Under the pieces are notes generated by a model. It did no database searches. It saw only the letters and a list, made by a program, of their open reading frames with translations, and had not been told where the DNA came from. Shown piece after piece: positions 28,512 through 39,779 of a DNA stretch of 64,000 nt (positions are counted from its first letter, which is position 1; each line of letters begins with the position of its first letter). The stretch spans positions 75,774,688-75,838,687 of the forward strand of contig NC_056000.1 of the NCBI RefSeq assembly GCF_018446385.1, read 5' to 3'. The DNA is from Zingiber officinale (taxonomy: Eukaryota > Streptophyta > Magnoliopsida > Zingiberales > Zingiberaceae). A program made the translations under genes and the position numbers.

Positions 28512-29906
28512 TGATAGATCGTTTGAAGCGATAGAGGGGGGGCTCCTTTTAAAAACTATTTCTTTTCTTTTATATAAAAGTCATGCAACGGAAATAATAA
28601 ATGAGACAAGGTTATTTACTTCGTTCGGAGTCTAGCTCGACTCCTACTCGAAGGCTCACGGTCCTTGACCGCACCGGTGAGCAAGACACTATAATCATTC
28701 TTTCCAAAATTCTCGGAAAGAAGTGAATCGTACAATGGAGCAAGATAGTAACACACTACTATCTTGCTTTAAAAGAAATTACAATGCAAGCTTTAATTAA
28801 AATATACCGACAATGAAATTGTAGATGGAGCTTAGGTCGGCACTTTAGGATGCAGTAGCTTGCTGAGCTGATGAAGACGAGTTGTTCACAGAGCAGGAAT
28901 TTTTTATCAGAAAAGTTGTATTCACGCTTCTGGCTTCGACCATGTTTTATAAGAATTTTGGACGTTCGGTCGACCGATCCCTCTGTTCGGTCGACCGAAC
29001 CTGCTCCCTTCCATTCTGGCTGAAGTCCGAAACTGACTCAATCTTTTGCATTTACTGATCTTTAATGGTTGGTCGACCGAACTGTCAATTTCCCTATTCG
29101 TCGAAATCTGCAGAAATCTTCATTAATGGTGCAAGTAATTTTGATTGGATCGGTCGATCGATCCCTAAGTTCGGTCGACCGATCAGCCCTTCTTTCCTTT
29201 TTCTGCTAATCGGTGCTGATGAACTGGCTAGACTGAGTCATCATGGTTCGGTCGACCAATCTTACGGTTCGGTCGACCGATCAAGCTTTGATTTGACTTG
29301 GACTCAGTTTGATCTGAACTGATCTCTGGTCTGAGTTAAGCTGGTTCGGTCGACCAATCCTCCTGTTCGATCGACCGATCAGGCCGAATATGCAAAACAG
29401 AGTTTAAACAATATTCCTGCAAAACAAGTGTTAGCACAGTAATATAATGCATGAGTAATATAGACAGTAGAACTGTCTTGATCTCAACTTGGAAATCTTC
29501 CCGGTTTCTTCAGTTGGATCAGCGACCTAAGGTTGTTCCCTTCGGGAACCCGACCTCACTGTCGCTCCTCCAGTTTGTTTACCTCAACCCACCTGCCAAA
29601 CTCTGATCCTCCAGATCTAGTTTGGACTTTTCACTTAGCCTTGATTGGCTCCCCAGGACTTTCCTTCAATATTCAACCCTCCAGACCTCTCGATCATACC
29701 ACCAAGCATTGGGTCCCCTTGACCTGCTTGGATTTGCACCTGGGTTCCACAATCTGCTAAGACTTTTCTGCCTAGCCTCCAGCTAGGACTTTCCCGATTG
29801 AGTAAACATCCTGCACACTCAGTCAACTTGTTAGATCATAAGACTTAACTTGAACCTTTGACAACATCAAAACTCAGGTTTGATTCTGGTGCAGCTTGTA
29901 CCAATA
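28512..29906 (-). repeat. 3' LTR of the large copia element
   Basis: Plus-strand start TGATAGATCGTTTGAAGCG, end GTACCAATA (mutated from CAACA as seen in the other LTR). It contains nine GGTCGACC-type palindromes at 28960-29385, followed on the minus strand by a TATA-like CTTATAAAAC at about 28943-28952. Confidence 0.9.
28955..29390. repeat. Array of nine TCGGTCGACCGA palindromes in the 3' LTR
   Basis: The 12-base perfect palindrome TCGGTCGACCGA, or a form with one or two changes, recurs nine times, often in pairs about 21 bp apart. The array ends just upstream of the LTR TATA box in transcription direction. Confidence 0.9.
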
Positions 29907-30282
29907 ATCTCCCCCTTTTTGATGTTTGGCAATCAAGGTTCAAAGTTAAGTTTAAAAATATGCAACAAGTAAATAAACAAGCATAAAAATATGCAATAAG
30001 TAAATAAACAAGCAATTTAACTTTTAAGTTTTCCCTTTGAGTTAATTAACTCCCCCTGAATTCACTATCTCTCCCCCTTTGACACACATCAAAAATAGGG
30101 GCAGAACCAAAAACCAAGTAAATTTTGAAAAGACTTATCAAAGAATTTACTAATATTTAGAAAAAAAACATTAAAAATATACTAAATCAAGAATTTCAAA
30201 AACTGCATGTTGAAAAGAATAAATTTTGAAAGATATTTTGAAAATTAAAATATTTAAAGTTTTGAAAAGAATAAAAGTTTAA

Positions 30283-30545
30283 AACAACATTATGAAAAAT
30301 ATACTTCGAATTTTGAAAAACATTTTGAAAAAAGAAAAATATTTTGAAAAGAATGAATTTTTTAAACAACATTATGAAAAATATACTTTGAAATTTGAAA
30401 ATCAAAAAGAAAATATTTTGAAAAGAACAATTTTTTTTAAACAACATTATGAAAAATATACTTTGAAATTTGAAAATCAAAAAGAAAATATTTTGAAAAG
30501 AACGAATTTTTTAAACAACATTATGAAAAATATACTTTGAAATTT
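30283..30545. repeat. 75-83 bp AT-rich tandem repeat, about 4 copies
   Basis: ACAACATTATGAAAAATATAC recurs (first 20 bases shared) at 30283, 30366, 30441 and 30516. It lies between ORF2 and the polypurine tract of the copia element. No coding role is seen. Confidence 0.85.
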
Positions 30546-31257
30546 GAAAATCATTTTGAAAAGATTTTTTTTTAATATTTTGAAAATAACTTGATCAAAA
30601 ATATTTTGAAAATAACTTGATCAAAATAGTATAAGGTTAAAAATCTTGTTTTGAAGCTCCCCCAAAATTGACAAATTCCTAAAGTCCAAGCATGGATATA
30701 GAAAAACTAAGAAAAATTTGTCCTTATGATGAAATGTCCAACCCTTGTCCAAGGCTAGCTATCACAAGATAGTAGCAATTTGACTCAGGTTGGTCAATTT
30801 GAGTATTTAGTACTAACCAGGTTTTTACCGGCTAGTTCAAATTGATCAATATATGTTTTTAAAGTCCAGATTTATAGCGATGCACTGACATAAGCATCTG
30901 AAATCTAGGGCTAGGTCCTAAGCATCTCACCCATTCTAAGTTTACAAACAAGGGACCCTACTGTGCTTGTGAGATGCTGGCTCCTAGAACTATAGGATCA
31001 TGCAATTCTACGGTAAGACCTAGGCTATTCCATAAAATGAAAAATAGTTTCAAAGAATTTTGAAAAAAAAATTTAAATGGGAATTTTTACAAAAATAAAT
31101 TTGAAAAATAAACTATGTAGTAATTTTCAAAATCAAAGAACCTATTCTACAAAATTTATCAAAAGCTACTAAAGACTGAAAAACACTGAAGATTAAGCAT
31201 AGTCATAATTCAAGTTAAGTAATAAATACAATAAGTCACAAAAGATAAATCCTTAAA

Positions 31258-32557
31258 TCACTCATCCTCGTCCTCATCATCTCTCAGATAATCAAAAATC
31301 CTCTGCTACTCCTTCTGTAAAGCATCAGTACGCTCTATCATCTCTTGACGAAGATCAGCAACTTGTCCCTGAAGAGAGCTGTATTGATCATCCATTTTTG
31401 TTTCCAAGGAGTCAAAGTGACTGAAAATATCATCTCGCGGACGGGTAAAGAAGTCACTAGTTAGAGGAGGAGGAGGAGCATATGAACTGCTTTGAGGAAA
31501 ATCGAAGAAGGGTGTCATGGCAAATCCAGGATCAATGACCACAGGAGGAGGCGCAGTAACGGGAACCAGATCATCCTCATCAATAGGATCGTCGACAGCC
31601 GGTGGGATGTAGTGTGGATGTGTTCGTTTGTACACAAGCCCTTCGGTGCTTGTCTTAATCCCAGCCAAGGATAATTGCCTAACCCCGACAAGATCAAAGT
31701 CAGACAACTCAATCAACTCGCCTCGATGAACCCCTACTCCGAGATTGGCAATATAAGCAGTGAGAACATGACACTAAATCATATGAACCTTAAATGAAGT
31801 GTTGTACCCTGAATAGTAAATGATAGATCTGAATACCCAGTAGCCTAGGTCAAAGTCTAGTCTATGTCTAAGGGCGTACATCAGAAAAAGATGAACTGGT
31901 CGTAAAATGCCCTGATCTCCAGATGATAAAGGATAAATGCAAGACACAATCATCTTATAAAAAGCGTTGTCTCTTGGACTAAGGGGTACAGTTGACATCT
32001 TTTTAGGACGAGGTCCCTCAAAGAAGTCAGCATACATGAGGTCTAGAGTCAGATGAGAGAAAGGAGCAGGTAACGGATATGGAAGGGACACACTAAAAAA
32101 GAGACGGTTGACCGAAGGTCGGATTTGTAGAAATCGAAGGAACATGTCAAGATCAAATAACATATCTCTAGTGGCAACCCTAGTCCTATAGTGATGGGGG
32201 TCAAGCTCGCACAAGTTGTGGTAAAATTCCAAGCAGAGAATAGGATTGTATGCATGTCTACAAAAGATGATGCTATCAAGTTGATAGTGTTGATTGATCT
32301 CTATGACCTCAGGACAAAAGGTTTGATAGAATTGAAGATCCAAACAACGAGTACCTATAACCTTAAATTTTTTATTAGGAAAAGATAGACGCAATTCTTC
32401 GGTAGAGAACCTAGGATCTTGGCTAGGATTAAGAGAGCTAGCCTCTCTTTGTGCAATAGCTCTACTTTTCTCACTATATATAAAAAAAATAAAATGCAAT
32501 AAGTAACTTGCGCAAAAATATTAAAAGGAATAGAATAAAAGGAAGTTACCGAGGCAT
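31258..32557 (-). pseudogene. Second ORF of the copia element, plant-transposon-protein (PF20167-like), spliced, with two in-frame stops
   Basis: The proposed start is ATG at 32557-32555 in an 8-base coding exon (M-P-R, last codon split). A 76 bp GT-AG intron (32549-32474) follows, then one long frame from 32473 to a TGA at 31258. Two TAG codons (31776-31774 and 31308-31306) interrupt it, the second followed in frame by an acidic tail (RDDEDEDE). The first part, with QFYQTFCPEV, CRHAYNPILCLEFYHNL and RTRVATRDM, resembles the 'putative plant transposon protein' domain. The C-terminal part has a Pro-rich linker and a coiled coil (DSLETKMDDQYSSLQGQVAD). Function unknown. The splice model is inferred from borders and phase. 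Confidence 0.55.
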
Positions 32558-32654
32558 TTTCGAATGGGAAGAGGCTGGAATCGGCGAATAGAAAAAGAGA
32601 TAGAAGAGTAGAGAAATGGATTTGGATGAGTTGTGAGGGTTGCTCGCTTCTGCT

Positions 32655-32660
32655 TATATA
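32655..32660 (-). promoter_or_regulatory. Internal TATA box upstream of ORF2
   Basis: The minus strand reads TTCTATATAAGCAGAAG, about 100 bases upstream of the proposed ORF2 ATG. It begins 7 bases after the nearest GATCGGTCGACCGATC palindrome. The intervening leader is pyrimidine-rich. The inference is an internal promoter. Confidence 0.5.
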
Positions 32661-32664
32661 GAAG

Positions 32665-32945
32665 ATGATCGGTCGACCGATCAAGGGTTCGGTCGACCAA
32701 TCCCTTAAATCTCTCATCCTTTTGACCGGTGAGCAGACGTTCGGTCGACCGATAAAAAAGTTCGGTCGACCGATACTTTAATTTTGGCACAGATAGAGGG
32801 AAGGTGAAGGGTAGTTGAACGGATGAGATTTTATGTTTTCGGTCGACCGATAACCAGGTCCGGTCGACCGAATAATTAAATCAGTCTTTATGTGGCATAA
32901 ACAGGGTTCGGTCGACCGAACCAATTATTCGGTCGACGGAACTTT
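32665..32945. repeat. Internal array of eight TCGGTCGACCGA palindromes
   Basis: Eight copies of the same 12-base palindrome as in the LTRs, some with one change, lie upstream of the ORF2 TATA box. They include GATCGGTCGACCGATC (32667-32682) and GTTCGGTCGACCGAAC (about 32906-32921). Confidence 0.9.
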
Positions 32946-33690
32946 TAAATAATTTTTTTATTAAATAATTTTAATTAAGTTTTGAATTAATTTTTTTAAT
33001 TAAATTTTAAAATAAGTTTAATTAAGTTTTAAAATAATTTTTTAAAAGGTTTAAAATAAGTTAAAAATAATTTTTTAATTAAGTTTAAATTAATTTTTAA
33101 TTAAGTTTAAATTAATTTTTTAAAAAAATTTTTAAAATAATTTTTAATAAAACAATTTTTAATAAGTTAAAATAATTTTTAATAAGTTTAAATTAATTTT
33201 TAATTAAGTTTAAAATAAGTTTTTAAAATAATTTTTAATTAAGTTTAAATTAAGTTTGAATTAAGTTTAAATTAATTTTTAATTAAGTTTAAATTAATTT
33301 TTAATTAAGTTTAAATTAATTTTTAATTAATTTAAAATAAGTTTTAATAAGTTTAAAATAATTTTTAATTAAGTTTAAATTAAGTTTAAAATAAGTTTTA
33401 ATAAGTTTAAAATAATTTTTAATTAAGTTTAAATTAAGTTTTAATTAAGTTTAAAATAAGTTTTAATTAAGTTTAAAATAAGTTTAAAATAGTTTTTTAA
33501 AATAAGTTTAAATAAGTTTAAAATAATTTTTAATTAAGTTTAAAATATTTTTTTTAAAAATAAATTTTAATTAAGTTTAAATTAATTTTTAATTAAGTTT
33601 AAAATAAGTTTTTAAAATAATTTAAATTAGTTTAGTTTGAATCAGATTTGAATTAGATTAGGTTTGAATTAATTTAGTTTGAATTAGAAT
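32946..33690. repeat. Low-complexity TTAATTAAGTTTAAAT block
   Basis: Almost pure A/T sequence built from variants of TTTTTAATTAAGTTTAAA (units of about 20 bp, many in tandem). It separates gag from the ORF2 promoter. No coding capacity. Confidence 0.9.
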
Positions 33691-34330: not shown

Positions 34331-35737
34331 TCATTGCGATCCAAGTACCATATTTAGACACTTGGATCCCATTTCGAACCTTTCCAACGTTTTCTTGAGT
34401 CGCTCGACTTGACCTTTCAAATCAGAATTTTCTTCCTCAAGTTTTTCAACTTGAGTTGAAGTTCCGACTTGAACTCGGTTAGTCGAGTCACTCAAGTTAA
34501 CTTGTTGCTTAAGGTGATCTATTTCCTTAAGTAACAAGTTATTTTGTTTTTTCGATTTTGCTAATTTTTTAAACAAACATTTAACTACTTTAAGTAAATT
34601 TGACTTTGAATAAATCATTACCATATTCGGATCTTCCGATCCGGGGCTTCTCTCGGAATCGAGGTCGATCTCGGACTCGTATTCTTCGTCGGACTCGGAC
34701 TCGGAATCTTTGTTTCTTGCCATAAATGCAAGGTGACTCGAGTGCTTTGTTTGCTCTGCGTCGGATTCGTCGGAAGAAGTTTCGTCCCATGTCGCTTGAA
34801 GAGCCTTCTTCCGTCTTGTCGATTTGGGTCTTTCTTCTTTCCGATTTGGGCATTCATTTTTAAAATGCCCATTCTTGTTGCATCCGTAACAAATCATTTC
34901 TGATTTATTTTGGATCTGGTTTGGTGGAGTCTTTTTGGAGCTTCTTCTAAACTTCTTCTTAGTCAACAGTCTTCGAACCATGTTGACTAATTCTTCTTCA
35001 TTGGTTGAGTCAGGGTCTGATTCGCTTTCTAACTCAATCTTTGTTTTTGATTTTTTCTCCTTGCTTGACCCTGCATACAAAACAACACCTTTCTCGCCAT
35101 GGCTCATGTTAGATTGCTCGTGTAGTTCTAATTCACAGAATAACTCATCTAACTTAAGAATTGAAAGATCCTTAGAAACTTTGTAAGCATCTACAATTGA
35201 TGCCCACAAAGTATTCCTTGGAAAGACGTTCATAGCATACCTTATTGTGTCACGATTTTCGAGATTGTGTACGATCAGGTGAAGACCGTTGAGGATGTCT
35301 TTCAGTCGAGCGTGTAGTTGCGAGGCGATCTCTCCAGGAAACATTTTTATATTTAACAAATTATTTAAAAGTAGATCTCGTTTGTTTACCTTCGAGTCGT
35401 TCGTTCCTTCGTGTAGTTTGACTATCGAGTCCCATAATTCTTTGGCGTTATCATAGGGACCAACTCTATTCAACTCCTCCATCGTGAGTCCGCACTGAAT
35501 GGTATTGATTGCTTTGTAGTTCAGTTGTGCCTTCTTGATCATCTGAGGTGTCCATTCTTCTGGTTCTAGGATTGTTCCGTCCTTCATTGGAGGAGTATAG
35601 CCTTTCAAGACTTTGAACCAGAGCTCAATGTCAGACTTTAAGTAGCACTCCATCCTATTCTTCCAGTAACTGAAATTCTCTCCTTTGAATAGTGGAGGTC
35701 GAACCGTACTATAGCCTTCTTGATATGAGTTCGACAT
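34331..35737 (-). CDS. Copia gag protein with zinc knuckle (468 aa), intact
   Basis: This is a single uninterrupted frame that begins 160 bp after the primer-binding site. The N-terminal part has the copia gag signature (PPLFKGENFSYWKNRMECYL, then AKELWDSIVKLHEGTNDSK, UBN2-like core with DLLLNNLLNIKMFPGE). A CCHC zinc knuckle, CYGCNKNGHFKNEC, lies at about residue 284-297 and would bind the genomic RNA. After it come a Lys/Arg-rich stretch, a Ser/Glu/Asp-rich acidic region and a C-terminal coiled coil (VEKLEEENSDLKGQVERLKK). Function is capsid assembly and RNA packaging in the cytoplasm. The frame ends without running into protease or polymerase, which fits a non-autonomous element. Confidence 0.88.
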   Translation of the reverse strand: MSNSYQEGYSTVRPPLFKGENFSYWKNRMECYLKSDIELWFKVLKGYTPPMKDGTILEPEEWTPQMIKKAQLNYKAINTIQCGLTMEELNRVGPYDNAKELWDSIVKLHEGTNDSKVNKRDLLLNNLLNIKMFPGEIASQLHARLKDILNGLHLIVHNLENRDTIRYAMNVFPRNTLWASIVDAYKVSKDLSILKLDELFCELELHEQSNMSHGEKGVVLYAGSSKEKKSKTKIELESESDPDSTNEEELVNMVRRLLTKKKFRRSSKKTPPNQIQNKSEMICYGCNKNGHFKNECPNRKEERPKSTRRKKALQATWDETSSDESDAEQTKHSSHLAFMARNKDSESESDEEYESEIDLDSERSPGSEDPNMVMIYSKSNLLKVVKCLFKKLAKSKKQNNLLLKEIDHLKQQVNLSDSTNRVQVGTSTQVEKLEEENSDLKGQVERLKKTLERFEMGSKCLNMVLGSQ

Positions 35738-35899
35738 CCTTACAAAAAAAAGTTAATGAACAAAAATATTTCCAAGACTTTCGTCTTGGGATTAGTAGTG
35801 TTTGAAGAAAAAAATATTCTAAAAGAAAATAAATTGAAGAAAAGAGAAAAAGTTTTTAAAAATGCTTTGAAAAACGGTTAAGAAATTTCAGAGCTAATC

Positions 35900-35912
35900 G
35901 GCTCTGATACCA
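35900..35912 (-). other. Primer-binding site for initiator tRNA-Met
   Basis: TGGTATCAGAGCC on the minus strand, two bases after the 5' LTR end. It is the standard copia primer site. Confidence 0.9.
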
Positions 35913-36369
35913 ATTGATAGATCGTTTGAAGCGATAGGGGGGGGTGAATATCGCTCCTTTTAAAAACTATTTCTTTTCTTTTATATAAAAGTCGTGCAGC
36001 GGAAATAATAAATGAGACAAGGTTATTTACTTCGTTCGGAGTCTAGCTCGACTCCTACTTGAAGGCTCGCGGTCCTTGACCGCACCAGTGAGCAAGGCAC
36101 TATAATCCTTCTTTCTGAAATTCTCGGAAAGAAGTGAATCGTACAATGAAGCAAGATAGTAACACACTACTATCTTGCTTTAAAAGAAATTACAATGCAA
36201 GCTTTAATTAAAATATACCGACAACGAAATTGTAGATGGAGCTTAGCTCAGCACTTTAGGATGCAGTAGCTTGCTGAGCTGATGAAGACGAGTTGTTCAT
36301 AGAGCAAGAATTTTTTATCAGAAAAATTGTATTCACGCTTCTGGCTTCGAGCATGTTTTATAAGAATTT

Positions 36370-36815
36370 TGGACGTTCGGTCGACCGATCCCTCTGTTCG
36401 GTCGACCGAACCTGCTCCCTTCCATTCTGGCTGAAGTCCGAAGCTGGCTCGATCTTTTGCATTTATTTAATGGTTCGGTCGACCAAACCCCTTTTTTGGT
36501 CGACCGAACCCCTTTTTCGATCGACCGAACCCCTTTTTCGATCGACCGAACAGCCAATTTCCCTGTTCGTCGAAAGCTGCAGAAATCTTCATTAATGGTG
36601 CAATTAATTTTGATTGGATCGGTCGACCGATCAACCCTTCTTTCCTTTTTCTACTGATCGGTGCTGATGAACTGGCTAGACTGAGTCATCATGGTTCGGT
36701 CGACTGATTAAGCTTTGATTTGACTTGGACTCAGTTTGATCTGAACTGATCTCTGGTCTGAGTTAAGCTGGTTCGGTTGACCAATCCTCCTGTTCGGTCG
36801 ACCGATCAGGCCGAA
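36370..36815. repeat. Array of ten TCGGTCGACCGA-type palindromes in the 5' LTR
   Basis: It holds additional 22 bp units (CCCCTTTTTCGATCGACCGA plus two bases) at about 36485-36552 that are absent from the 3' LTR. It lacks some others present there. Confidence 0.88.
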
Positions 36816-37195
36816 TCTGCAAAACAGAGTTTAAACAATATTCCTGCAAAGCAAGTGTTAGCACAGTAATATAATGCATGAGTAATATAGACAGTAGAAC
36901 TGTCTTGATCTCAACTTGGAAACCTTCTCGGTTTCTTTAGTTGGATCAGCGACCTAAGGTTGTTCCCTTCGGGAACCCGACCTCACTGTCGCTCCTCCAG
37001 TTTGTTTACCTCAACCCACCTGCCAAACTCTGATCCTCCAGATCTAGTTTGGACTTTTCACTTAGCCTTGATTGGCTCCTCAGGACTTTCCTTCGATCTT
37101 CAGCCCTCCAGACCTCTCAATCATACCACCAAGCATTGGGTCCCCTTGACCTGCTTGGATTTGCACCTGGGTTCCATAATCTGCTAAGACTTTTC

Positions 37196-39779
37196 TGTTG
37201 GTTGCTACTCGAAAAACCTAATGGTTCCACTGTACAAAAATTTTGTACAAAGATTTGAACCTTTTTCTAGCTACCATGTGTTCTTTTAAATTAAACTCGG
37301 ATCGCCTGCGGAACTTAACACGTTTGATCCAAAGTTTAATCTATTTGTTCTTTTAGGTTAAGACTTGGATCTCTTGCGGAACTTAACACGTTCGATCCAA
37401 ATCACCTAGGTTATTAATTTCATTAAATATTAATTTCCAAAATCGGCTTCCAGGACTGCATGGCGAGACACATGACCTTCTTGGATATGGGAACAACCAC
37501 CACCGCCTAGACAAAGCCTTTTAAGGAAAGCTAATATTTAATTTCCTTAAATAACTTTAGGTCAACCGAAAAGAACAATCAAATCACAAGGAAAATAAAA
37601 ATAAAAGAACACAACATCGAAAACAAATTCGAAATACTAGAATCGCATGCCTCTTGTATTTGGTATTTTTACATGAAGATAAAACTAGTATGATGCGGAA
37701 ATAAAATACTAGTATACCTTTTCTTTTGCAAACAAAAACCTCTAGGTCTTCTACTGTATTCCTCTTCTAATCCCGGACGTTGTGTGGACAACGATCTTCC
37801 GAGACGAGAAACCACCAAAGCACTTTCTTCTCCTTTCTTCAAGTTTCGACCAAGCACAAAGCTTCCAAAAGATGAAGATCTTTTTCCACCAACCAAGCTC
37901 CAAGGGATGCAAGCTTTCTCTCCTTCTTCTCCAAGCTAAATTCCGGCCACCACTTGATCTCCAAGGAGGATGAGAGGTTCGGCCACAAAGATGGAGAGAA
38001 GAGAAAGGGAAGAGGCCGGCCACACCAAGGAAGAAAAGAGGGAGAAAAAGAATAGAGTCGTTCACCATGAAGGCACCTCTACCCCCTCTTTTATAATCCT
38101 TGGTCTTGGCAAATAAAGAAATTTAAATAAAAATTTCCTTAATTCCTTTGCCATGAAAAAGAAAAATTATTTTAATTAAAACAATTTTCGTTTTTCAATT
38201 GCAATGGCCGGCCACCTCTTTCCCCAAAACAAGGAGAGTTTTAATTAAAACAAAAATTAAAACTTCCTAATTTGTTTCTAGAAATTTATAAAAATTTCTC
38301 CAATAATTTTTATCCCTTCATGATTGGTTAATAAAAAGGAAATTTTATAAATTAAAAATCTTTCTTTTAAAACATGTGGATAATTTCTAAAAGGAAAGTT
38401 ATCTCTAAAAATTAAAATATCCTTTCAATCTACAAATAAGGAAAGATATTAAATCTTTTCTTAATCTTTTGTAGAAACTAATAAAAGAGAATTTTTAATT
38501 TTTAAACTTTCTTTTAAATCAAGAACATGAATAAAAGGAAAGTTTTTACCAAAATTAAAATCAACCTTTTAATCTATAAATAAAGAAAGAAATTTAGCTC
38601 TTCTCTTAATCTTTTGTAGAATCTTATAAAAGGAAAGATTTAAATTTTTTAAACTCTCTTTTAAATCATGTTATCCACATAAGAAAAATTTTTAAAATTA
38701 AAATTCCTTTTTATTTTAATAGGGCCGGCCACCTAAGCTTGAGTTCAAGCTAGGGCCGGCCACATGAATTCACCCATGAACCAAACCATGGCCGACCCTA
38801 GCTTGGTCTCCAAGCTAGCTTGGCCAACCCCTATAGGATGGGTAAGAAGGTGGGTATAGTACTCTATAATTAAGAGGCTACGATAGGGACCGAGAGGAGG
38901 AATTGGTTTTGGTCTCCCGATAAAATTAAGCATCCCGTGTTCGCCCCGAACACACAACTTAATTTTATCAATAATAATTTATTCCACTAGAGAACTATTA
39001 TTGAACTACCGCACCAATCCCAAATTACATTTTGGGCTCCTTCTTATTATGAGTGTGTTAGTCTCCCTGTGTTTAATATAACAAATGTCCACTAATTAAG
39101 TAAGTTACTGACAACTCACTTAATTAATATCTAGCTCCAAGAGTAGTACCACTCAACTTCATCGTCATGTCGGACTAAGTCCACCTGCAGGATTTAACAT
39201 GACAATTCTTATGAGCTCCTCTTGAGAACATTCTCAACCTAGATTTCTAGGACACAGTTTCCTTCTATAATCAACAACACACACTATAAGAGATATCATT
39301 TCTCAACTTATCGGGCTTATTGATTTATCGAACTAAATCTCACCCATTGATAAATTAAATAAATAAATACCAAATATATGTGCTTGTTATTATATTAGGA
39401 TTAAGAGCACACACTTCCATAATAACTGAGGTCTTTGTTCCTTTATAAAGTCAGTATAAAAGAAACGACCTCTAATGGTCCTACTCAATACACTCTAAGT
39501 GTACTAGTGTAATTATATAGTTAAGATAAACTAATACCTAATTACACTACGACCTTCCAATGGTTTGTTCCTTTCCATCTTGGTCGTGAGCTATTGTTTA
39601 TAATTTATAAGGTGCTGATAACATGATCCTCTGTGTGTGACACCACACACCATGTTATCTACAATATAAATTAATTGAACAACTACATTTATCATAAATA
39701 TAGACATTTGACCAATGTGATTCTTATTTTTAGATAAATGTTTATACCAAAAGCTAGGCTTTTAGTATACATCCTAACA
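37196..39779 (-). mobile_element. Solo LTR (2584 bp) of a TGTTAGGATGTATAC-type element
   Basis: It is flanked by perfect TTTTC duplications (37191-37195 and 39780-39784) and its ends are TGTTGG...CCTAACA. On the minus strand it begins TGTTAGGATGTATACTAAAA and has a TATA box (GGATTATAAAAGAGG, about 38087-38100). The interrupted sequence is intact in the sister LTR at 29750. No internal coding region is present, so recombination between LTRs is the likely origin. It contains repeated GGCCGGCCAC motifs around 38210 and 38720-38760. Confidence 0.9.

What the first reader, a model, noticed from the sequence alone, without database searches (positions are those of the whole stretch)
32473..32945. 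Internal promoter in a copia element: the LTR palindrome array is repeated just upstream of a TATA box and a spliced second ORF
Eight TCGGTCGACCGA palindromes (32665-32945) are followed 7 bases later on the minus strand by CTATATAAGC. Then come a pyrimidine-rich leader, an ATG, an 8-base coding exon and a 76 bp GT-AG intron that opens a 400-codon frame. In both LTRs of the same element the same palindromes also end just before a TATA box. Copia elements normally express everything from the LTR. This looks like a second transcription unit that reuses LTR-type control elements to express ORF2 separately from gag. The sequence shows the motifs, spacing and splice borders; use as a promoter is inference.
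Basis: partly seen in the sequence, partly recalled or inferred. Interest (0 to 1): 0.75.

Follow-up and report, generated by a model that had tools for sequence, protein, structure and literature searches.

The report
Retrotransposon gene with LTR-style own promoter
A plant jumping gene carries a second gene behind what looks like its own switch, built from the same short palindromes that sit in its main switch; related elements in the same genome use other palindromes, again matched between the two switches in the copies read, which hints at a private control code.

Summary
In detail: palindrome array, TATA, 8-base coding exon, 76-bp intron and ORF2, in order, in a Sirevirus-type copia element with gag but no pol. 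In 30 family copies (window included) the array is present in 29, TATA in 28, donor GT in 28, acceptor AG in 30. Palindromes mutate like spacers after insertion but vary about five-fold less in the replicating lineage; ORF2 shows past purifying selection. One genomic copy lacks exactly this intron. Two other classes, with 33-40% identical ORF2 (PF20167), use different palindromes, matched between LTR and ORF2 promoter in the four copies where both were read. Exceptions: one class A LTR of 12 lacks the array, and one class C-like copy has its array region replaced. Palindromes before the LTR TATA and the env-like gene, and the internal-promoter idea, were published in 2010 (PMC2829016), without the promoter being identified. 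So this is a new variant of a known kind. New: TATA, exon and intron, selection and splicing evidence, within-genome co-variation. No RNA data; this copy's ORF2 has one in-frame stop.

The parts
28512..29906 (-). 3' LTR of the element (ends CGATCTATCA)
   Evidence: two 300-base blocks 96% and 97% identical to the 5' LTR; 91% and 94% with gaps
28944..28953 (-). TATA box of the 3' LTR (CTTATAAAAC), 12 bases after the last LTR palindrome
   Evidence: a TATAAA box near this place in 9 of the 10 family LTRs printed
28966..29378 (-). Palindrome array of the 3' LTR (9 sites at <=1 mismatch)
29907..29924 (-). Polypurine tract AAAAAGGGGGAGAT next to the 3' LTR
   Evidence: like junctions in L067, L072, L075 and L084-L086 of classes B and C
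31309..31773 (-). ORF2, part after the in-frame stop (155 codons; coiled-coil-like by eye at the end)
   Evidence: no Pfam match
31774..31776 (-). In-frame TAG that interrupts ORF2 in this copy
   Evidence: other copies open
31777..32473 (-). ORF2 exon 2, part before the stop; Transposase_32 (PF20167) similarity, E 4.6e-7, below the curated cut-off
   Evidence: related to class B and C ORF2 at 33% and 37% identity
32474..32549 (-). 76-bp GT-AG intron, phase 2
   Evidence: donor GT in 28 of 30 and acceptor AG in 30 of 30 copies; precisely absent in L088
32550..32557 (-). Exon 1, coding ATGCCTCG
   Evidence: ATG kept in 26 of 30 copies
32652..32661 (-). Internal TATA box CTATATAAGC
   Evidence: TATA[AT]A in 28 of 30 copies; no shared variant in 12 sites
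32669..32940 (-). Internal palindrome array, eight TCGGTCGACCGA sites in pairs 20-21 bp apart
   Evidence: conserved in the replicating lineage
34331..35740 (-). gag (Retrotran_gag_2 E 1.9e-8; weak zinc knuckle), no pol frame after it
35900..35913 (-). Primer binding site TTGGTATCAGAGCC
   Evidence: identity as a tRNA-Met-type site is recalled
35915..37198 (-). 5' LTR, cut at its far end by another insertion
36355..36364 (-). TATA box of the 5' LTR (CTTATAAAAC)
36377..36805 (-). Palindrome array of the 5' LTR

Best explanation
The element is a pol-less, gag-bearing copia retrotransposon of Sirevirus type. Its ORF2 sits in the env-like position and is a separate transcription unit. RNA polymerase II would start about 25-35 bases after the internal TATA; the short transcript would be spliced at 32550/32473 and translated into an N-terminally basic, probably nuclear protein related to PF20167. 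The palindromes form a family-specific operator shared by the LTR promoter and the ORF2 promoter, so that one dimeric factor could switch both. Shown from sequence: the anatomy, its conservation, past selection on palindromes and ORF2, splice competence through one intron-less copy, and the LTR/internal match in three element classes. Inferred: promoter use, start site, nuclear location, and binding of a factor. Which factor it is (ORF2 itself or a host protein) is open.
For: Conservation in 30 copies: array 29, TATA 28, donor GT 28, acceptor AG 30. Palindromes: private mutations 0.385/site against 0.374 in spacers, but shared variants 0.052 against 0.240 (Fisher p=0.0015); TATA 4 private, 0 shared. 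ORF2: private 22 syn/78 nonsyn, as neutrality predicts; shared 25/11; p=9e-7. Spliced junction found once in the genome, reversed control 0, in a copy that keeps its array and a TATA-like box; 300 acceptor sites with the intron. A tiny first exon plus phase-2 intron was read in the window, three class B and three class C copies. Motif matrix largely block-diagonal and matched between LTR and internal arrays. With motifs masked, LTR and internal arrays show no similarity above chance (A: best E 1.2; B and C: none at E 0.01).
Against: No transcript evidence of any kind. L088 keeps sequence upstream of its internal promoter, so at least once an RNA that started further upstream was the one spliced; splicing is therefore not unique to an internal transcript. 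Class C shows no TATATAA-type box after its array, only TTTAAAA-like sequence in some copies. One of 12 class A LTR pieces, L068, is homologous to the other LTRs over most of its length but has lost the array. L078 has a class C-like ORF but no class C array; its upstream stretch is replaced by unrelated repeats. Off-diagonal motif hits at one mismatch reach 3 (B in A) and 2 (A in C). Only 12 TATA sites were available. In class B the shared unit extends beyond the 10-mer (AAACATG/CATGTTT flanks), so some LTR/internal exchange there is possible.
Confidence: 0.74

Rival explanations
1. ORF2 is expressed only by splicing or read-through of the LTR transcript, as proposed for other env-like genes; the array and TATA before it are not a promoter.
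For: The intron-less copy L088 carries array and linker upstream, so a longer RNA was spliced and reverse-transcribed. Predicted splice sites for Bagy2 and Athila and stop-codon suppression for SIRE1 are cited in PMC2829016.
Against: The donor follows an 8-base exon carrying its own ATG right behind a TATA. If the LTR RNA were efficiently spliced, the intron would be lost at each round, yet 300 acceptor sites retain it against 1 loss, and all three classes share it. Palindromes here are constrained.
Confidence: 0.14
2. The palindromes matter as RNA or DNA hairpins (two neighbouring palindromes can pair) that affect small-RNA targeting or packaging, not as protein sites.
For: Palindrome-rich LTR regions of maize Sireviruses are small-RNA hotspots (PMC5311732 passages). 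Neighbouring sites 20-21 bp apart could form a 12-bp stem with an 8-9-base loop (inference).
Against: Hairpins between neighbours need only complementary arms, not that each site be its own palindrome. Sites without a close partner also occur (29069, 36696), and arrays stop just before the TATA both times. Not tested by folding here.
Confidence: 0.15
3. LTR and internal arrays match because recombination or template switching keeps copying one into the other; the motifs have no function.
For: In class B the LTR and internal arrays share a longer unit around the palindrome. One class A LTR has lost its array.
Against: Masked spacers show no homology above chance in A, B or C. Palindromes are about five-fold less variable than spacers among shared variants, while equally mutable after insertion.
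Confidence: 0.07
4. The trans-acting reader of the motif is a host transcription factor; families differ because they recruit different host factors.
For: LTR motifs persist in four Sireviruses without the env-like gene (PMC2829016 Table 3). The same core CGGTCGACCG occurs in a Vitis Sirevirus. Those authors suggest different nuclear factors.
Against: ORF2 stayed under selection in a family without pol, and motif class tracks ORF2 class in the three classes seen. This is compatible with, not proof of, an element-encoded reader.
Confidence: 0.5

Closest known systems
Sirevirus repeated palindromic motifs (RM) in LTRs and before the env-like gene (Bousios et al. 2010, PMC2829016)
   Same: Palindromes with a CGG..CCG core (Vitis consensus CGGTCGACCG equals the core here), in the LTR before a TATA box and before the env-like gene; motif differs between elements but is shared within one; internal promoter proposed.
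   Different: There the promoter was not identified, and no intron or selection test appears in the passages read. Here: TATA, 8-26-nt first exon, phase-2 intron, intron-less copy, private/shared mutation test, three classes in one genome, ORF2 related to PF20167, and a family without pol.
VANC anti-silencing system of VANDAL DNA transposons (Hosaka et al. 2017, PMC5735166, passages)
   Same: Works-like analogy only: an extra ORF in the element, short repeated motifs in its non-coding DNA, related elements with different motifs.
   Different: Copia retrotransposon, palindromic CpG-bearing motifs, PF20167 rather than DUF1985/DUF287; no binding or demethylation shown here.
Accessory gene23 of maize Grande (Gomez-Orte et al. 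2013, as described in PMC7264820)
   Same: An extra gene of an LTR retrotransposon transcribed from its own promoter; nuclear protein.
   Different: Its gene is antisense (and Grande is a gypsy element, recalled); here the gene is in sense and its promoter uses LTR-type motifs.
Athila additional ORF with Transposase_32 in sunflower (PMC11728184, passages)
   Same: Protein with PF20167 similarity encoded beside gag-pol; nuclear localisation predicted there.
   Different: Athila element; no matched palindromes reported in the passages read.

Membership tests
Sirevirus (Ty1/copia) | Palindromic repeated motifs in the LTR, before a TATA box | tested here: met
   10 of 12 family LTR pieces have 7 or more sites; of the other two, L075 aligns to only the first half of the LTR and L068 lacks the array
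Sirevirus (Ty1/copia) | Motif copies upstream of the env-like/extra ORF | tested here: met
Sirevirus (Ty1/copia) | Multiple near-identical PPTs next to the 3' LTR | tested here: met
   Two GGGGGAGA tracts read (about 29908 and 30070); no exhaustive count. Like PPT/LTR junctions in L067, L072, L075 and L084-L086. Sirevirus-specific letters of the PPT are recalled.
Sirevirus (Ty1/copia) | Reverse transcriptase falls in the Sirevirus clade | not testable with these tools
   No pol in the window element; of classes B and C only the pol C-terminus was fetched
Sirevirus (Ty1/copia) | copia-type gag with zinc knuckle | tested here: met
   PF14223 34.4 bits (cut-off 27); zf-CCHC only 18.2 bits, below its cut-off 20.8
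Non-autonomous gag-only LTR element (TR-GAG type, name recalled) | gag present, pol absent across the family | tested here: met
   paired by reading coordinates: 15 of 40 gag-end matches have a listed ORF2 within 6 kb; 14 of these are 1.5-2.3 kb apart; the fifteenth gap (5.8 kb) showed no pol in the two stretches read. The other 25 cannot be judged.
Envelope gene | Transmembrane domains | not tested
   No transmembrane prediction was run; N-terminus is basic
VANC anti-silencing factor | DUF1985 / DUF287 domain | tested here: not met
   PF20167 is the only Pfam family at E<=10 for the ORF2 pieces of A, B and C (none for A's last 155 codons)
VANC anti-silencing factor | Protein binds the repeated motif and removes methylation | not testable with these tools
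   needs in vitro binding and methylation data
PF20167 Transposase_32 | Score above the curated cut-off of 45 bits | tested here: not met
   Window ORF2 30.3 bits; class B 58.7 and C 58.6 bits pass. A is homologous to B and C: E 1e-28 and 2e-42

The most novel reading that the evidence does not exclude
ORF2 is a retrotransposon-encoded, sequence-specific DNA-binding regulator that reads the palindromes in its own promoter and in the LTR: a self-recognition circuit of LTR retrotransposons, analogous to VANC but unrelated by family. Motif and reader would have diverged together into at least three largely non-overlapping codes (TCGGTCGACCGA, CAGTCGACTG, GAATCGATC..GGATCGATTC) in one genome. A pol-less family would keep gag and ORF2 because it needs its own code but can borrow pol.
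Probability: 0.32. Interest if true: 0.86.

Novelty: new variant of a known kind. Interest (0 to 1): 0.62.

Why it matters
How Sirevirus env-like genes are expressed, and what they do, is described as unproven or controversial in the passages read of PMC2829016 and PMC3414828. Here one genome offers a concrete candidate promoter with start region, a splice junction and three matched motif/protein pairs, so both questions become directly testable: where the RNA starts, and whether each ORF2 protein binds its own palindrome. If it does, plant retrotransposons would have private gene-control codes, relevant to how abundant copia families escape or tolerate silencing.

Tried and rejected
Internal array as a captured LTR fragment: rejected, because with palindromes masked no similarity above chance remains. 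Fold of the ORF2 piece alone: mean pLDDT 34.5, unusable; no fold search was run. Sequence search of solved structures with the three-row ORF2 profile: 0 hits at E<=1. Spliced junction in class B: 0 copies. The 5.8-kb gap in one class A copy as a pol-bearing relative: no pol frame in the two stretches read. More motif classes: eight further PF20167 loci were all class C, so three classes is what was seen, not a census. dN/dS from the copies (0.146) was set aside as biased, because those copies were picked by protein similarity; loci picked by non-coding DNA were used instead, of which 14 of 30 were dropped for lack of one ungapped match over 200 codons. L020 was dropped, and L020 and L022. L068 and L075, poor in motif sites, are in the matrix; L078 was left out of it and is told in the report. 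A first count of gag/ORF2 pairs (15 of 16, in my notes) was wrong; the recount is 14 of 15.

Full report
What is there. The window lies on contig 15 of an unnamed 3.09-Gb genome. Size and 22 chromosome-scale contigs fit the haplotype-resolved ginger assembly (PMC8342452, start of abstract seen in the search listing); that identification is inference. On the minus strand lies an LTR retrotransposon: 5' LTR 35915-37198 (cut by another insertion), primer site 35900-35913, gag 35740-34331, a non-coding linker, a 94% AT tract, the palindrome array 32940-32669, TATA 32661-32652, exon 1 32557-32550, intron 32549-32474, ORF2 from 32473, PPT about 29924-29907 and 3' LTR 29906-28512. No pol frame was seen. 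ORF2 in this copy is interrupted by one TAG; other copies have open frames.

More than chance. The window has 26 sites within one mismatch of TCGGTCGACCGA against 0.02 expected. The exact pair pattern occurs 9,956 times in the genome, with 0 for the reversed control. Sites come mostly in pairs 20-21 bp apart, in the LTRs and internally.

Conservation in other copies. A protein search scored 150 copies of 15,742 first-look candidates; the best 30, the window's own included, were read. Array (3 or more sites) 29 of 30, TATA[AT]A 28 of 30, ATG 26 of 30, donor GT 28 of 30, acceptor AG 30 of 30. In 28 aligned copies, variants private to one copy estimate mutation after insertion, and variants shared by three or more estimate what passed in the replicating lineage. 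Palindromes: 37 private, 5 shared in 96 sites. Spacers: 67 private, 43 shared in 179 sites (Fisher p=0.0015). TATA: 4 private, 0 shared in 12 sites. Of the palindrome changes, 19 of 37 private and 20 of 21 two-copy ones are C>T or G>A, as methylated CpG decay would give.

ORF2 was a selected gene. In 16 of 30 loci chosen by non-coding DNA (14 dropped), private variants are 22 synonymous and 78 nonsynonymous, matching the roughly 1:3.6 ratio of sites; shared variants are 25 and 11 (p=9e-7). Pairwise dN/dS is 0.21 and falls from 0.68 to 0.17 as dS rises. Yet the family seems to lack pol: of 40 scored copies of the gag/linker region, 15 pair with an ORF2 hit listed (paired by reading coordinates), and 14 of these are only 1.5-2.3 kb apart; the one 5.8-kb gap shows no pol in the two stretches read. 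The other 25 cannot be judged.

Splicing. The exact exon1-exon2 junction occurs once in the genome within three mismatches, with 0 in the reversed control. That copy, L088, retains its array, a CTATAAATA box and the upstream linker. The simplest account is that a spliced RNA, begun upstream of the internal promoter, was reverse-transcribed. With the intron, 300 acceptor sites are found. The rarity of loss suggests that the replicating RNA is mostly unspliced at this site (inference). Class B shows no intron-less copy; class C was not searched.

Three matched codes. A family search with PF20167 scored 150 of 7,315 candidates; 16 upstream stretches were fetched. Three (L076, L079, L083) carry CAGTCGACTG arrays, in two of three followed by TTTTATATAAGCC; twelve carry GAATCGATC..GGATCGATTC arrays, L082 and L093 weakly; one, L078, carries no such array. 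L078 matches class C only from its leader on, and unrelated repeats lie before it. LTR stretches fetched downstream of two class B and two class C copies carry the same palindrome as their own internal array: B 8 and 6 sites, C 20 and 14. Of 12 class A LTR pieces, 10 have 7-10 sites; L075 aligns to only about the first half of the LTR, and L068 is homologous to the others but has lost the array. Off the diagonal, at one mismatch for A and B: class A motif is 0 in class B and 0-2 per stretch in class C; class B motif is 0-3 in class A and 0 in C; class C motif (exact 7-mer, both strands counted) is 0-3 in class A apart from L068 with 6, and 0 in B. Masked for motifs, LTR and internal arrays share nothing above chance, though in class B the repeated unit is longer than the masked core. 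The ORF2 proteins are 33-40% identical and B and C pass the PF20167 cut-off. Where read (window, L076, L079, L083, L080, L081, L082), all have a tiny first coding exon (8, 11, 20-26 nt) and a phase-2 intron (76, 130-141, 185-200 bp); in L077 no GT donor is seen at that place. In L081 the splice junction assembles MRTQNPNPKKKRKV, which contains the classical SV40-type nuclear signal (identity recalled); the B and A N-termini are basic but weaker. A copia pol end lies upstream in 5 of the 8 longer stretches (L076, L079, L080, L082, L083).

Mechanism. Most likely the array plus TATA is the promoter of ORF2, and the array is the operator through which the LTR and ORF2 promoters answer to the same factor. 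Pairing at two helical turns (class A) and dyad symmetry suggest cooperative dimers (inference); class B spacings of 13 and 20 do not all fit whole turns. Whether the factor is ORF2 itself or a host protein is undecided. Three matched classes and retention of ORF2 without pol favour an element-encoded reader; LTR motifs in Sireviruses without the env-like gene and the shared Vitis core favour a host factor.

Known work. Bousios et al. 2010 (PMC2829016; [quoted passage not shown] Their Table 3 lists one consensus per element over LTR and linker, so matched motifs per element were implicit. The 2016 follow-up on maize palindromes is not held and was not read. VANC features come from passages of PMC5735166. 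My searches of the held library listed no paper recognisable from its entry as identifying the TATA, short exon and intron of such a gene or testing ORF2 as reader; of the listed papers only a few were opened, in passages, and papers outside that library were not searched.

Verdict. Real and informative, but of a known kind: a new variant, interest 0.62.

Noticed in passing
window 32945-33640: A 94% AT tract just upstream of the internal array has A periodicity at 11 and 22 bp (autocorrelation 0.46), as in curved DNA; L088 also has an AT-rich tract there.
   Followed up: partly
window 30248-30568: Four AT-rich direct repeats of 90 bases at 74-82-bp spacing between ORF2 and the 3' LTR.
   Followed up: no
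window 37199: The 5' LTR stops at a TGTTGG.. sequence that looks like the start of another LTR element nested in it.
   Followed up: no
L081 about 1175-1450 (class C): Splicing of a 26-nt first exon creates a PKKKRKV-type basic signal across the junction.
   Followed up: partly
L084 972-1201 and L076 836-990 (class B): CAGTCGACTG is often flanked by CATGTTT or AAACATG in both LTR and internal array, so the operator may be longer, or sequence exchange may have occurred.
   Followed up: partly
L085 950-1485 and class C internal stretches: No TATATAA-type box was seen just after class C arrays in LTR or internal copies; TTTAAAA may serve instead in some.
   Followed up: no
L068 (class A LTR, reverse strand): An LTR homologous to the family but without the palindrome array; the ORF2 copy beside it (L019) keeps its internal array while its TATA is altered.
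   Followed up: partly
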